Part shown: positions 22,708 through 26,810 of the stretch, in pieces
Layout of the letters: each line of letters begins with the position of its first letter
How positions within the stretch are numbered: position 1 is the stretch's first letter
IMG/VR virus record: IMGVR_UViG_3300046757_000757
Span: 1-26,972 of that record
Length of the DNA stretch: 26,972 nucleotides
Source of the DNA: a virus
Direction: 5' to 3' (one strand)
Translations under genes and position numbers: made by a program
The notes under the pieces: generated by a model
The model's input: only the letters and a program-made list of their open reading frames with translations
Databases searched by the model: none
Told to the model about the DNA's origin: nothing

Positions 22708-23304
22708 ATGGAACACTTTATAAGAGTAGTAATGGAAAAACAGGACACACTAAGCGAAGGCTTAAATGAGTCAGTATTTCCAGGAAGTTATGTATTTGAA
22801 TCAGAGCAAGGTGCTACGATATTTGAAATGCCTCTAGCAAAAGAACTTACATCAGAAGAAGCAGACGAATTTGCACAAAAATTAAGTGAATATGTATTTG
22901 ATCAAGGTTACAATGATTTTGACATTGAAATATCTACAAATGATAAACTCGACGAAGACGAAGAAACATACGAAGACGATGATGACTTTTTTGAAGAATA
23001 TGGTGTTTTGTGGTACAACGAAGATGATGACCCGATAGACGAAGCAGAATACCGAGGACGTAAAGTTAAATTAGGCAAGCCTATGCAAGGTGATGTTAAG
23101 AAGTTTAAAGTTTATGTTAAAGACCCAAAGACAGGTAATGTTAAAAAAGTAAACTTTGGACACGGTGGTAGTAGTGTTAAAGGTAAGTCAATGAAGATTA
23201 GAAAAAATAATCCAGCTGCAAGGCGCTCATTCCGTGCTAGACATAACTGTGATAATCCAGGACCGCGTACAAAGGCAAGATACTGGTCATGTAGGAAGTG
23301 GTAA
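22708..23304 (+). CDS. Probable virion-associated protein with acidic middle and Cys basic tail
   Basis: This 198-residue protein has a short leader (MEHFIRVVMEKQDTLSEG) containing LSE-G, a site like T4 prohead protease targets. An acidic stretch (DEDEETYEDDDDFFEEYG) is followed by a YRGRKVKLGKPMQGDVKKFK segment. A basic end with FRARHNCDNPGPRTKARYW and a final Cys/Trp follows. The tail pattern recurs in several proteins that I recall from T4-like cyanophages (DUF5872-like). The two tail Cys may bind zinc. AAGGA precedes the ATG. A role inside the capsid is inferred from the leader and tail. Confidence 0.6.
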   Translation: MEHFIRVVMEKQDTLSEGLNESVFPGSYVFESEQGATIFEMPLAKELTSEEADEFAQKLSEYVFDQGYNDFDIEISTNDKLDEDEETYEDDDDFFEEYGVLWYNEDDDPIDEAEYRGRKVKLGKPMQGDVKKFKVYVKDPKTGNVKKVNFGHGGSSVKGKSMKIRKNNPAARRSFRARHNCDNPGPRTKARYWSCRKW

Positions 23305-23305
23305 T

Positions 23306-23662
23306 ATGCGTATTGACGAGTTAGGAAATAATAATAGTAATTTAAGATTAGATTTTGATAACGTAGAAGACTTATGTATTTTTATACGTAATAATCCTAT
23401 GTTTTATCGTAAGCAATTTTTCCCATGTATGGCTAATATATCTGATAAACTTGATGCAGGTAAAAAATGTGATCCAGTTAAAGACATAGGTCCATGCGTT
23501 GATAATGCTTGTGACGCTTATTGTAATGCATATGATTTGCCACATGACTCTAAAACATTATTTCCGGTAGACGACAGACGTGCCGCAATAGAAAAACTAT
23601 ATGCAGAAGAAATGCCTAATGTTAAAAAAGGAATGTATAAGGCTGAATCATCATGTTCGTAA
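23306..23662 (+). CDS. Small Cys-rich unknown protein
   Basis: This 118-residue protein starts at ATG 23306, with AGGAAG 7 bases upstream. The frame is open further upstream but inside the previous gene. MRIDELGNN is followed by a YRKQFFPCMANISDKLDAGK segment and then CDPVKDIGPCVDNACDAYC, with several Cys, and a charged end. The Cys spacing suggests disulfides or a metal site. I recall similar proteins from T4-like cyanophages. It overlaps the next gene by 10 bases. The function is unknown. Confidence 0.6.
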   Translation: MRIDELGNNNSNLRLDFDNVEDLCIFIRNNPMFYRKQFFPCMANISDKLDAGKKCDPVKDIGPCVDNACDAYCNAYDLPHDSKTLFPVDDRRAAIEKLYAEEMPNVKKGMYKAESSCS

Positions 23663-24726
23663 GAGAATTATTCGAAGCAGAAAAGAAAGTAGCGGTTGCG
23701 GCATTTGGTCGTATGAATCCACCTACTATTGGACATGAAAAACTTGTAAACAAAGTAAAAAGCCAAAGTGGTGATCATTACATTTTCCTAAGTCAAACAC
23801 AAAAACCAAAAGATAATCCACTACCGTTCGATGAGAAATTAAGATTTGCCAAAGAATTTTTTCCCGGTGTTAACGTAGGGCATCCGCAAGTACGTACACC
23901 AATTCAAATGTTACAACTATTAGAAAAGTTAGGATATACTGATATTGTATATGTTGCAGGTTCTGATAGAGTAGAAAGTTTTGATAAACTGTTTAACGAT
24001 TATAACGGTAAAGAATATAACTTCAATAGTATTAAAGTAATAAATGCAGGCGAACGTGATCCGGATGCAGAAGGTGCTGAAGGCATGAGTGCAAGTAAGA
24101 TGAGATCGGCTGCCGCTCAAGGAGACTTAGATTCATTTACTCAAGGTGTTCCTAAACTAGCAGCTGCAGAAGAAATGTATAATGCTGTACGTAAAGGTAT
24201 GGGAATTAAAGACGAAGTACCAGCACAAGAAGATACGGCTAAGAATAACGACGACTATCAAGCAAAGAAAAAAGCACTACAAGATATTCAAGCAGATCCA
24301 AACACTGCTAAAGATCCTGAACTTAAAAAAGAACTTGCACGTAGAAAAGCTGAATTAGAAAAAACAAACGAAATATTAGGCTTTGCTACTAAAAATCCAA
24401 AACGTGCAACTATAAAAGTTAAAAAACGTCCACCAGAAGAAGATAGTGTAAAAGATAAAATTGCAAAACGTAGAGCAATGGCCGCTAAAGGCGATTCTCG
24501 TGCGTTTAAAGCAGGCGCACTTGGCGAAGGCGACTTAGTAGTGGATAAAGGATCATTAATATCATACCTACGTGATATGATACAAAAATATGTTATGGAA
24601 GAAAACGATGTTGAAAAACTTTCTCAACTATTAAAATTTATGGTAGGTAAAGAAATTAAGTCACATGGTGATAAAAGATATCGTATTACTTCTGAAGATA
24701 TAGTTGAGGCTTTAGGACGTGGATGA
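23653..24726 (+). CDS. Nucleotidyltransferase (cytidylyltransferase/NMNAT-like) with long C-terminal extension
   Basis: This is a 357-residue protein. After a leader MFVRELFEAE comes a Rossmann nucleotidyltransferase domain (residues 12-180). FGRMNPPTIGHEKLV contains the HxGH-type motif (PTIGH), VAGSDR lies at about 101-106, and GMSASKMRSAA contains the (S)xxSxxR motif near 144-153. These residues bind a nucleotide for adenylyl or cytidylyl transfer; the acceptor is unknown. The C-terminal half (after 190) is helical and Lys-rich, with an AKRRAMAAKGDSRAFKAG segment that is not part of the usual enzyme. The leader LFE-A looks like a prohead protease site, so the enzyme may be packaged in the capsid (inference). 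Confidence 0.75.
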   Translation: MFVRELFEAEKKVAVAAFGRMNPPTIGHEKLVNKVKSQSGDHYIFLSQTQKPKDNPLPFDEKLRFAKEFFPGVNVGHPQVRTPIQMLQLLEKLGYTDIVYVAGSDRVESFDKLFNDYNGKEYNFNSIKVINAGERDPDAEGAEGMSASKMRSAAAQGDLDSFTQGVPKLAAAEEMYNAVRKGMGIKDEVPAQEDTAKNNDDYQAKKKALQDIQADPNTAKDPELKKELARRKAELEKTNEILGFATKNPKRATIKVKKRPPEEDSVKDKIAKRRAMAAKGDSRAFKAGALGEGDLVVDKGSLISYLRDMIQKYVMEENDVEKLSQLLKFMVGKEIKSHGDKRYRITSEDIVEALGRG

Positions 24727-24934
24727 GCTTGCACAAATAGTAAAGTTAGCAGGAGTTAATGAGTTTAAAGGATATCAAGAATATACTTTAGAGAACATGA
24801 GTCATACTGCTACCGAACTAAAGCAAAAAGAAAGAGAAATGGGTATAAAACCCGGAGACCAAGAATGGTTTAAATTATGGTTTAGTTTACCTTATATGAA
24901 CGGACCAGTAAAGTTTAGAGGACGTACAAAATGA
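24719..24934 (+). CDS. Small conserved unknown protein
   Basis: This 71-residue protein starts at GTG 24719, with GAGG 9 bases upstream, and overlaps the nucleotidyltransferase end by 8 bases. The sequence is IVKLAGVNEFKGYQEYTLEN and then GIKPGDQEWFKLWFSLPYMN, a pattern I recall from small proteins in marine T4-like phages. It is soluble, with a central helix and an aromatic-rich end. Its stop overlaps the next ATG (ATGA). The function is unknown. Confidence 0.6.
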   Translation: MDELAQIVKLAGVNEFKGYQEYTLENMSHTATELKQKEREMGIKPGDQEWFKLWFSLPYMNGPVKFRGRTK

Positions 24935-25833
24935 ATCTTCGTCAGTTATTTGAAAGAGGAAGAATTGTTCCAGGTGTTAACACTACGCCTGATGTCGGTC
25001 CTAACGAAATTAAAAAACAAGCTGCAAAGTTTGGATTTAAAGTAGACAAAGACGGCAGACCACAAAATCATCCTAAAAAAGTAAAAGGTTCTAAAACGAA
25101 TGTTGCATTTAACTTAGGCATGACTGAAGGCAACATGCTTGCTAATCCTAAAAATACATTCCTTACAAAAGCAGACACAGCATACGACTTTATTAAGGTA
25201 GGTACAAACTTAGCAAACTTAAAAGATGTTCCAGCAGGCGGAAATATGGACGAGCCAGACATAATGATTGCTCCATATGCAGGCGCTAAAGAAATGAAGT
25301 ATCTTATGAAGCAACTTAATCGTATTGGTTATAAAACACAAGATGCTCAAGGCTATCAAGATGCCCACTATGACGAAGAGCCAACTGGTGGAGAAGCACC
25401 TCCACAAATGAAGGCACAAGGTCCATTAGGTAAAATTAAAATATCTAAGTTACGTGGTGTACAAAAAGAAAGAACATACGAAAAATTAGCAAAGCAACTT
25501 GAACGTGTATTAGAAGACGACTATGCTCCGTTACAGATTGACCGTAAAGGTAGAGTAATTAACGGACATCACAGACTAGATGCATTACGTTTAGTAGGTG
25601 AAGAATATGCTCGTGTACATATGATCGACGATATAGTAGAAAACATAAAAGAAAACTTTGCTGATGGTAAGAAAAAAGGCAAAAGCAGACCTGGTAGAGT
25701 AAAGAAGTCAGGTGCTAGTTGTAACGGTAGTGTTACCAGTTTAAGAGCAAAAGCAAAGAAATCTAGTGGCGAACGTGCTAAAATGTACCACTGGTGTGCT
25801 AATATGAAGTCAGGTAGAAAGAAGAAGAAATAA
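24931..25833 (+). CDS. ParB-like nuclease-domain protein with Cys basic tail
   Basis: This 300-residue protein has a leader MNLRQLFERGRIVPG and a Lys-rich N-terminal region. A domain at about 170-240 matches ParB/Srx-like proteins: GKIKISKLRGVQKERTYEKL, then IDRKGRVINGHHRLDALRLV with the GHHR motif near residue 210. The last 60 residues (SRPGRVKKSGASCNGSVTSL, then ERAKMYHWCANMKSGR) form a basic Cys-containing tail like that in marine phage virion-linked proteins. ParB-fold proteins can bind DNA or nucleotides or cut DNA; the activity here is not proven. The leader suggests packaging with the genome (inference). It is coupled by ATGA to the preceding gene and by TAATG to the next. Confidence 0.7.
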   Translation: MNLRQLFERGRIVPGVNTTPDVGPNEIKKQAAKFGFKVDKDGRPQNHPKKVKGSKTNVAFNLGMTEGNMLANPKNTFLTKADTAYDFIKVGTNLANLKDVPAGGNMDEPDIMIAPYAGAKEMKYLMKQLNRIGYKTQDAQGYQDAHYDEEPTGGEAPPQMKAQGPLGKIKISKLRGVQKERTYEKLAKQLERVLEDDYAPLQIDRKGRVINGHHRLDALRLVGEEYARVHMIDDIVENIKENFADGKKKGKSRPGRVKKSGASCNGSVTSLRAKAKKSSGERAKMYHWCANMKSGRKKKK

Positions 25834-26033
25834 TGTTTAGCAAACAATGTAAATTACACTTAGAAGAACAAGGCGAAACAGGATTAGAACATATGAAGGC
25901 TGCACTAAAAACAGCCGTACAACTACAATTACTTGTACCAGCACTAGTAGTACACAGTGTTGCACCTAGGTTCTTTACTGATACAGCAACAAGAGTAATG
26001 AAAGATATTTTGCACAATCGTAAAGATGCATAA
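25833..26033 (+). CDS. DUF6356-like small protein
   Basis: This 66-residue protein begins MFSKQCKLHLEEQGETGLEH and then MKAALKTAVQLQLLVPALVV followed by HSVAPRFFTDTATRVM. The pattern matches DUF6356, a short family with a KHCKLHLEEaGmt-type start and one hydrophobic helix, seen in marine bacteria and phages. It probably associates with the membrane through residues 23-44. The ATG overlaps the preceding stop (TAATG). The function is unknown. Confidence 0.65.
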   Translation: MFSKQCKLHLEEQGETGLEHMKAALKTAVQLQLLVPALVVHSVAPRFFTDTATRVMKDILHNRKDA

Positions 26034-26036
26034 ATA
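26029..26036 (+). promoter_or_regulatory. T4-type late promoter motif (CATAAATA)
   Basis: CATAAATAC spans the stop of the DUF6356-like gene, 28 bases before ATG 26064. A weak GGGA lies between. It matches seven of eight bases of the late element. Confidence 0.4.
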
Positions 26037-26063
26037 CAATATAAGTTAATTCGGGATTTAAAA

Positions 26064-26810
26064 ATGAAGATATACGAAATTACATCAATTAAAAAAGAGT
26101 CAACTCAATTAGACGAAGCATTACCAGCGTTATTAATACCTGGTATTATTGCAGGCGTAAGAATTGCAGGTGGTTGGGCAGCAAAACAAGGTGCAAAAAT
26201 ACTTGCACAAAGAGGCGCAGCGGCTGCAGGCGCAAAAGAATTAGGCAAACAGGCTGCTAAACAAACTGCTAAAGGAGCAGGTGCTGTTGCAAAAGGTGTT
26301 GCTAAAGCACCAATTAAGCACCCTGTTGCAACTGCTACAGTAGGTGGCGGAGCATATGTTGCTAAGAAAGCAGGTGATGCAATTGACGCTGTTGGTGATT
26401 CAGTTGATGACATTGTAGCAAAAGCCGGAGATGGCATTGATGCTATAAGAGATCAAATAACAGCCGCATTTGGTAATGCAGGGTTTGGAAAAGTTGCAGC
26501 ATTTGCATCTAAGTATGCAATTCCAGCATTGGCCGCTGTTGCTATACTATATGGCGGTAAAAAGATTTGGGATTATTTAACTAAAGAAGGCGAAGCACAA
26601 CCTGCAACAGAAAGTGCTACAGCAGGCGCTACAGCATCGGGCAACGTAGCATCGGTTGCTAATCCGGTTGCGGCTAATGCTAAAATTAAACGTGATAAAA
26701 AAGGTGTTCCAGTAGCACCACAAAAGAAAAACAAAGATGGTACTGCTGTTAATGCGTTAGACATGGATAACAATATTATGGGCGGTAAACCAATTAAAAG
26801 GGTGCAATAA
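26064..26810 (+). CDS. Ala/Gly-rich probable internal virion protein with membrane segment
   Basis: This is a 248-residue protein. A leader MKIYEITSIKKESTQLDEAL has LDE-A, a site like T4 prohead protease targets. It is followed by hydrophobic PALLIPGIIAGVRIAGGWAA, then Ala/Lys-rich helical repeats (AKQTAKGAGAVAKGVAKAP), an acidic DAVGDSVDDIVAKAGDGIDA stretch and a membrane-like helix at about 150-166 (YAIPALAAVAILYGGKKIW). The end is low-complexity, basic and Ala-rich. The mixture suits a protein that is packaged and acts at membranes during DNA entry, but this is inference. A late promoter motif precedes it. Confidence 0.55.
   Translation: MKIYEITSIKKESTQLDEALPALLIPGIIAGVRIAGGWAAKQGAKILAQRGAAAAGAKELGKQAAKQTAKGAGAVAKGVAKAPIKHPVATATVGGGAYVAKKAGDAIDAVGDSVDDIVAKAGDGIDAIRDQITAAFGNAGFGKVAAFASKYAIPALAAVAILYGGKKIWDYLTKEGEAQPATESATAGATASGNVASVANPVAANAKIKRDKKGVPVAPQKKNKDGTAVNALDMDNNIMGGKPIKRVQ

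What the first reader, a model, noticed from the sequence alone, without database searches (positions are those of the whole stretch)
22708..26810. Shared N-terminal leaders resembling capsid-targeting/prohead-protease sites
Four proteins start with short leaders ending in (L)-x-E: LSE-G (22708), LFE-A (23653), LFE-R (24931) and LDE-A (26064). T4 gp21 cleaves after (L/I)-x-E, and T4 internal proteins use such N-terminal targeting peptides. If so, a nucleotidyltransferase, a ParB-like protein and an Ala-rich membrane protein could be packaged and injected with the DNA.
Basis: partly seen in the sequence, partly recalled or inferred. Interest (0 to 1): 0.65.

Follow-up and report, generated by a model that had tools for sequence, protein, structure and literature searches.

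The report
Capsid-targeting tags on phage cargo proteins
Two enzyme-like proteins of this uncultured marine T4-type phage, and probably a third, begin with short cut-off tags of the kind T4 uses to load proteins into its head; related enzymes bearing such tags have been found in purified virions, which suggests that these phages bring ready-made enzymes into the host with their DNA.

Summary
The nucleotidyltransferase (23653, MFVRELFE|A) and ParB-like protein (24931, MNLRQLFE|R) carry a short leader whose Glu8 is nearly invariant in each family and which recurs on unrelated neighbours in relatives (115/1250 protein starts versus 12/6945 internal Met). The 26064 leader fits more loosely. At 22708 the claimed LSE|G site is not conserved and lies at the start of a conserved domain. 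Independent support: cyanophage homologues of the nucleotidyltransferase are published virion proteins in four phages; all four have T4-like leaders (MKKFSAFLNE|A, MKNFSSFLTE|A, MRFRQFIIE|A, MKSFLQFLKE|A). S-CREM2's virion-detected SAM hydrolase and kinase also carry such leaders. So the capsid-targeting reading is well supported; injection is inferred. Going further: protein 26064 and many small leader-bearing relatives contain a copy of their lineage's major-capsid cleavage junction and mature N-arm (SATAGATSAGNVA; shuffle z about 9-10). T4 gp61.1 has the same plan (MKTFKEFIKE|D plus a gp23-arm-like sequence), as do cyanophage proteins detected in virions. No description of this was found. 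Cleavage was not tested here.

The parts
23653..23676 (+). 8-aa leader MFVRELFE of the nucleotidyltransferase; predicted cut after Glu8 (base 23676), before Ala
   Evidence: E8 nearly invariant in 29 homologues; leader modelled at pLDDT about 55 against about 90 for most of the following enzyme core; virion-detected homologues carry longer T4-like leaders
23653..24726 (+). nucleotidyltransferase (GRMNPPTIGH; adenylyl/cytidylyltransferase superfamily), predicted virion cargo
   Evidence: PHROG 3041/395 cytidyltransferase; Foldseek: PPAT/NMNAT-type folds; homologous to MS-detected virion proteins
24931..24954 (+). 8-aa leader MNLRQLFE of the ParB-like protein; predicted cut after Glu8
   Evidence: E8 nearly invariant in 24 relatives, position 6 mostly L/I
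24931..25833 (+). ParB/sulfiredoxin-fold protein with a basic C-terminal module; predicted virion cargo
   Evidence: Foldseek ParB N-domain E 4e-4 on a low-confidence model; 14 of 24 relatives also carry an NT5C 5'-nucleotidase domain
26064..26117 (+). 18-aa leader MKIYEITSIKKESTQLDE of the Ala-rich protein; possible cut after Glu18
   Evidence: relatives: QLDE|M, QVNE|A, KLNE|A; looser than the two above
26064..26810 (+). Ala/Gly-rich protein with a hydrophobic stretch and a separate C-terminal module
   Evidence: the C-terminal module (aa about 183-248) occurs in relatives as small leader-bearing proteins
26610..26660 (+). E|SATAGATASGNVASVA: copy of the major capsid protein cleavage junction and mature N-arm of the lineage
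   Evidence: G010 gp23 has LSE|SATAGATSAGNVATLNR; local alignment z 9.5 against shuffles; z 10.0 against this clade's arm, at most 1.2 against other clades
22708..22758 (+). claimed leader MEHFIRVVMEKQDTLSE: not a leader, start of a conserved domain
   Evidence: LSE not conserved; stand-alone homologues of about 88 aa
23306..23662 (+). better start for the small gene listed at 23234 (MRIDELGNNN..); only a partial leader-like start
   Evidence: gene caller and relatives: MKLNEVQE, MKLFEIQE

Best explanation
The nucleotidyltransferase, the ParB-like protein and probably the Ala-rich protein are head cargo of a T4-type marine phage. Their short N-terminal leaders, M-[KR]-[LI]-x-[ED]-[LI]-h-(x)-E|[ADGST], work like T4 capsid-targeting sequences: they recruit the protein to the scaffold core of the prohead and are then cut after Glu by the gp21-type prohead protease, leaving the mature protein free in the head with the DNA. 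The most likely outcome is delivery into the host with the genome. The NTase would then act at once on nucleotide or NAD-type metabolism. Shown here: conservation, recurrence on unrelated proteins, clustering near the NTase gene, gp21 and gp23 in relatives, and leaders on homologues that other groups found in virions. Inferred: targeting, cleavage, injection and enzymatic role.
For: E8 nearly invariant in both families while most leader residues drift. Same leader on many protein families, 115/1250 starts versus 12/6945 internal Met. Codon use at L6 and E8 varies synonymously and E8 GAA use matches background, so the constraint is on protein, not DNA. The simple [LI]xE start motif is enriched within 8 kb of the NTase gene in pooled genomes: 27/143 versus 53/950, odds ratio 3.9. 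NTase homologues detected in virions by MS in four phages all have T4-like leaders. In S-CREM2 a pattern fixed from T4 IPIII residues 4, 7, 8 and 10 hits 4/25 recovered detected non-structural or unknown proteins versus 1/120 undetected, p 0.003. The same pattern in T4 hits two IP genes, gp24, Alt and gp61.1. gp21 in five reference phages and two relatives; gp23 sites [LI]xE conserved.
Against: No mass spectrometry exists for this uncultured lineage. Window leaders are 8 aa, shorter than the T4 10-19, and do not fit the T4 IPIII spacing exactly. gp21 and gp23 are outside the window and were found in only 2 and 3 of 29 relative contigs; contigs of 152-275 kb lack both by Pfam, probably fragments or divergent but unexplained. 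HTVC008M NTase has a leader-like start without the Glu. Enrichment near the NTase is significant on its own only in C48C1 and G005. The S-CREM2 authors allow that such enzymes could be co-purified contaminants.
Confidence: 0.82

Rival explanations
1. The leaders are propeptides of head-assembly factors (scaffold or core components) that stay in the head and are not injected.
For: T4 scaffold, vertex and core proteins are cut by the same protease; some relatives of the leader proteins look like capsid-arm mimics rather than enzymes.
Against: The NTase family, the S-CREM2 SAM hydrolase and the kinase are enzyme families with no obvious assembly role.
Confidence: 0.25
2. The shared N-termini are a translation-start or DNA-level feature or chance, not a protein signal.
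For: [LI]xE alone is common; genome-wide enrichment at starts is mild.
Against: Synonymous codons vary at conserved positions; Glu8 is kept in two unrelated families; the pattern is rare at internal Met; virion-detected enzymes bear it.
Confidence: 0.04
3. The leaders are targeting helices that are not cleaved.
For: An Asp at position 10 of T4 IPIII blocks processing but still allows targeting; no cleavage data here.
Against: Glu is nearly invariant and is followed mostly by A, D, G, S or T, as expected of a cleavage site.
Confidence: 0.1
4. The enzymes are highly expressed infection proteins that co-purify with virions, and the leader serves something else.
For: S-CREM2 and S-SCSM1 authors raise this possibility.
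Against: NTases were found in independent preparations by different groups; in S-CREM2 the T4-type leader pattern favours detected over undetected proteins.
Confidence: 0.07

Closest known systems
T4 capsid targeting sequence of internal proteins IPI, IPII, IPIII and Alt
   Same: short N-terminal leader with spaced hydrophobic residues ending in Glu; on unrelated proteins; phage encodes gp21
   Different: window leaders are 8 aa; cargo are nucleotidyltransferase and ParB-like proteins; processing not shown here
Cyanophage virion-associated cytidylyltransferase/NMNAT (T4-GC190; S-CREM2 gp154, S-SZBM1_140, S-SCSM1 ORF91)
   Same: homologous enzyme, T4-type leader in front, MS-detected in virions
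   Different: window lineage is uncultured, has a shorter leader, and 35-45% identity in the enzyme domain
T4 gp61.1
   Same: leader (MKTFKEFIKE|D) followed by a copy of the phage's own gp23 mature N-arm, as in the C-terminal module of 26064 and its small relatives
   Different: sequence follows the Straboviridae capsid arm; in the window the module is fused to the Ala-rich protein; no function found for gp61.1
Polyvalent injected proteins of phages (PMC5512222, seen in the search list only, not read)
   Same: multidomain, mixed nuclease/nucleotidase-type modules in relatives of the ParB-like protein
   Different: those are defined by very large multidomain architectures; membership not tested

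Membership tests
T4-type capsid-targeting propeptide | short N-terminal leader (10-19 aa in T4) ending in [LI]xE | tested here: inconclusive
   23653 and 24931: L-F-E at 6-8, Glu nearly invariant, but 8 aa long; 26064 loose, 18 aa; 22708 not met
T4-type capsid-targeting propeptide | hydrophobic residues at T4 IPIII positions 4 and 7 for targeting, 8 and 10 for processing | tested here: inconclusive
   virion-detected cyanophage homologues fit apart from the one-residue-shorter S-SZBM1 leader; the window leaders are shorter and do not fit exactly
T4-type capsid-targeting propeptide | same leader on non-homologous proteins | tested here: met
   27 sequence clusters with the leader, 7 with two or more members
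T4-type capsid-targeting propeptide | phage encodes a gp21-type protease with [LI]xE sites in gp23 | tested here: met
   in relatives, not in the window fragment
T4-type capsid-targeting propeptide | protein present and processed in virions | not testable with these tools
   presence reported for homologues in four phages; processing not reported in what was read
T4-type internal/ejected protein | ejected into host with DNA | not testable with these tools
   inference only
NMNAT/cytidylyltransferase-like family of cyanophages (T4-GC190) | homology over the catalytic domain | tested here: met
   E 3e-43 to 2e-18 against S-SM1, S-SCSM1, S-SZBM1 and S-CREM2 homologues; GRMNPPTIGH motif; fold match
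gp23 mature N-arm mimic (T4 gp61.1-like) | copy of the phage's own capsid cleavage junction/N-arm | tested here: met
   26064 module z 10.0 with its clade's arm, at most 1.2 with others; tested against relatives' gp23, as the window's own is not in the fragment

The most novel reading that the evidence does not exclude
T4-type phages, from T4 itself (gp61.1) to uncultured marine ones, make small head proteins that, once the prohead protease removes their leader, expose an N-terminus copying the mature arm of their own major capsid protein. This lets cargo dock in, or compete for, the capsid-arm site on the inner shell. In the window this module is fused to the Ala-rich protein.
Probability: 0.5. 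Interest if true: 0.85.

Novelty: new variant of a known kind. Interest (0 to 1): 0.72.

Why it matters
Virion proteomes of marine T4-type phages repeatedly contain metabolic enzymes, and some authors could not say whether these are cargo or contaminants. A sequence tag gives a testable rule for predicting virion cargo in this abundant group of ocean viruses, and suggests that NAD/nucleotide enzymes, SAM hydrolase, kinases and nucleotidases are delivered before phage transcription begins. The capsid-arm copy, found also in T4 gp61.1 (a gene with no function found), could be tested directly in laboratory T4.

Tried and rejected
Bare [LI]xE counting genome-wide: only mildly enriched, not decisive. 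LSE|G at 22708: rejected as not conserved; MEHFIRVVME at the same start fits the T4 spacing by chance, but its Glu10 is D, K or other in relatives. DNA-level or translation-signal explanation: disfavoured by codon diversity. First clustering of leader families merged through shared modules and was redone with a coverage limit. My simple gene caller misplaces starts in cyanophages that lack Shine-Dalgarno sites, so published coordinates or all in-frame starts were used. In the first run of the mimic matrix part of the T4 gp61.1 tail was typed wrongly; it was redone from the DNA, and the conclusion stands. C48C1 shows no clear capsid-arm mimic, and HTVC008M only a weak one (z 3.5). Pfam gp21/gp23 not found in most long relative contigs: left open.
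Full report
The window is a 26,972-base IMG/VR virus fragment from a T4-type marine phage: clamp loader, virion structural proteins and a Clp-type protease are in it, and DNA polymerase lies just downstream in a near-identical contig.

Conservation separates the four claims. Three scans of viral contigs returned about 146 loci. In the nucleotidyltransferase family the leader reads MFLRELFE|A, MKLRQLFE|A, MLLRELYE|A and so on; in the ParB-like family MKFQEISE|D, MKLRQLYE|H, MKIYDLDE|A, MKVNELLE|A. Glu8 is nearly invariant (90% or more) in both alignments, while most other leader residues are not. Protein 26064 keeps an MKI.EIT start and a Glu before the hydrophobic stretch (QLDE|M, QVNE|A, KLNE|A), a weaker case. 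Protein 22708 fails: LSE|G is not kept, and MEHFIRVVM is the start of a domain that also exists alone as proteins of about 88 aa.

The leader is a module. Among 1250 distinct protein starts in the loci, 115 match M[KRFLINQ]h.[EDQNKH]h.{1,2}E, against 12 of 6945 internal Met; the simpler [LI]xE gives 211/1250 against 374/6945. The first pattern was drawn from these families, so its odds ratio is descriptive, and related sequences inflate both p-values. It occurs in 27 sequence clusters, 7 with two or more members, with A, D, G, S or T mostly following the Glu. Leu6 uses many synonymous codons and Glu8 uses GAA at about the background rate, so the constraint acts on protein. In whole reference genomes and large relatives, [LI]xE starts cluster near the nucleotidyltransferase gene (pooled 27/143 within 8 kb against 53/950; C48C1 9/18 against 9/158). 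Most single genomes are not significant, and the pool counts the window and its near-identical contig separately. C48C1 and Melnitz show overt T4-like leaders there: MKKFKQYIDE|G, MINFSKYITE|D, MQGFKTFLSE|A.

The machinery is T4-type. gp21 (PF03420) is in T4, C48C1, HTVC008M, Melnitz, S-ShM2 and two relatives of the window; gp23 is in three relatives. gp23 keeps [LI]xE sites at the expected place, e.g. FLTE|A in T4 and YLAE|T in G005. The head genes are not in the window fragment, and several long relative contigs lack both by Pfam.

External test. Published virion proteomes report the homologous cytidylyltransferase/NMNAT in S-SM1 (PMC3037559), S-CREM2 (PMC10665884), S-SZBM1 (PMC9146016) and S-SCSM1 (PMC9602691). 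The window enzyme matches each of these genes. Their N-termini are MKKFSAFLNE|A, MKNFSSFLTE|A, MRFRQFIIE|A and MKSFLQFLKE|A. In S-CREM2 the virion-detected SAM hydrolase (MKDFDSFLEE|F), APH-type kinase (VKRFDAFLTE|E) and gp13 (MKDLHSFLTE|Q) have the same leader, and the Cas9-like protein has LRFASFMAE|A ending at residue 25. A pattern fixed from T4 IPIII mutagenesis (residues 4, 7, 8 and 10; PMC9026906) matches 4/25 recovered detected non-structural or unknown proteins against 1/120 undetected, with all in-frame starts allowed (p 0.003). In T4 the pattern returns the genes at 65416 and 65834 (IP genes), gp24, Alt (identities from my knowledge of T4) and gp61.1.

A second signal. gp23 of the window's relatives has the junction TRKYL[AS]E|[ST]ATAG[AT]TSAGNVATLNR. 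The C-terminal part of 26064 reads ATE|SATAGATASGNVASV, z 9.5 against shuffles. More than 20 small proteins (60-115 aa) in relatives are a leader followed directly by such a sequence, e.g. MRIRELIKE|YATAGATQAGNIASVANP. T4 gp61.1 (MKTFKEFIKE|DMVAGDSGGNPENISIGTTSGAVVNKGP) mirrors gp23 TE|AEIGGDHGYNATNIAAGQTSGAVTQIGP; it and cyanophage proteins S-ShM2_188, S-CREM2 gp160 (MS-detected) and S-SCSM1 ORF97 (annotated virion protein) do likewise. Across five Straboviridae, two cyanophages and two members of the window lineage each mimic matches its own clade's capsid arm and not the others; Melnitz is moderate, HTVC008M weak, C48C1 absent. Some annotators already name such proteins 'major head protein', and two papers mention gp61.1 by name; I found no paper on the leader-plus-arm design (the library is open-access only).

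Cargo. The enzyme core of 23653 models well (pLDDT about 90 in most blocks) and matches PPAT/NMNAT-type adenylyltransferases, while the leader (block 1-10, pLDDT 55) lies outside the fold. The ParB-like model is of low confidence, but its middle matches ParB N-domain/sulfiredoxin folds; 14 of 24 relatives also carry an NT5C nucleotidase domain.

Verdict. The capsid-targeting interpretation is well supported for two proteins, plausible for the third and rejected for the fourth. Cleavage and injection remain inferences. The capsid-arm copy is a real sequence feature whose function is a hypothesis.

Noticed in passing
T4 NC_000866.4 18966-19130 (-), gene 61.1; also RB43, Ac42, V07, Thanatos: T4 gp61.1 is a capsid-targeting-type leader plus a copy of the gp23 mature N-arm; in RB43, Ac42 and V07 it is the C-terminal part of a longer protein whose front matches proteins near the nucleotidyltransferase in HTVC008M, C48C1 and Melnitz.
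   Followed up: partly
window 24719-24934; L116 5538-6104; G005 gp22 (L251 244-1332) C-terminus: The motif LAG[LV] ends the scaffold protein (DIRRLAGLN) and recurs in small island genes (IVKLAGVNE; in G001 VLKKLAGIN) and at the end of a 639-aa protein in G005 (NIKALAGL): a possible second targeting signal.
   Followed up: partly
relatives of window 24931-25833 (e.g. L006, L011, L030): 14 of 24 ParB-like relatives carry an inserted NT5C 5'-nucleotidase domain that the window protein lacks.
   Followed up: no
S-CREM2 OR473000 7704-10313 (-), gp12: Virion-detected Cas9-like protein with an internal leader-like motif LRFASFMAE|A ending at residue 25, which may be a late leader or a different true start.
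   Followed up: no
window 22708-23304 C-terminus; window 24931-25833 C-terminus: Small basic Cys-containing modules (SFRARHNCDNPGPRTKARYWSCRKW; KMYHWCANMKSG) at protein ends; the first also occurs in SAR11, Roseobacter and Flavobacterium phages.
   Followed up: no
G001-G004 (119-275 kb relative contigs): Long contigs with the ParB-like protein or the nucleotidyltransferase have neither gp21 nor gp23 by Pfam, G003 even at 275 kb; fragments, divergent heads or other phage types.
   Followed up: no
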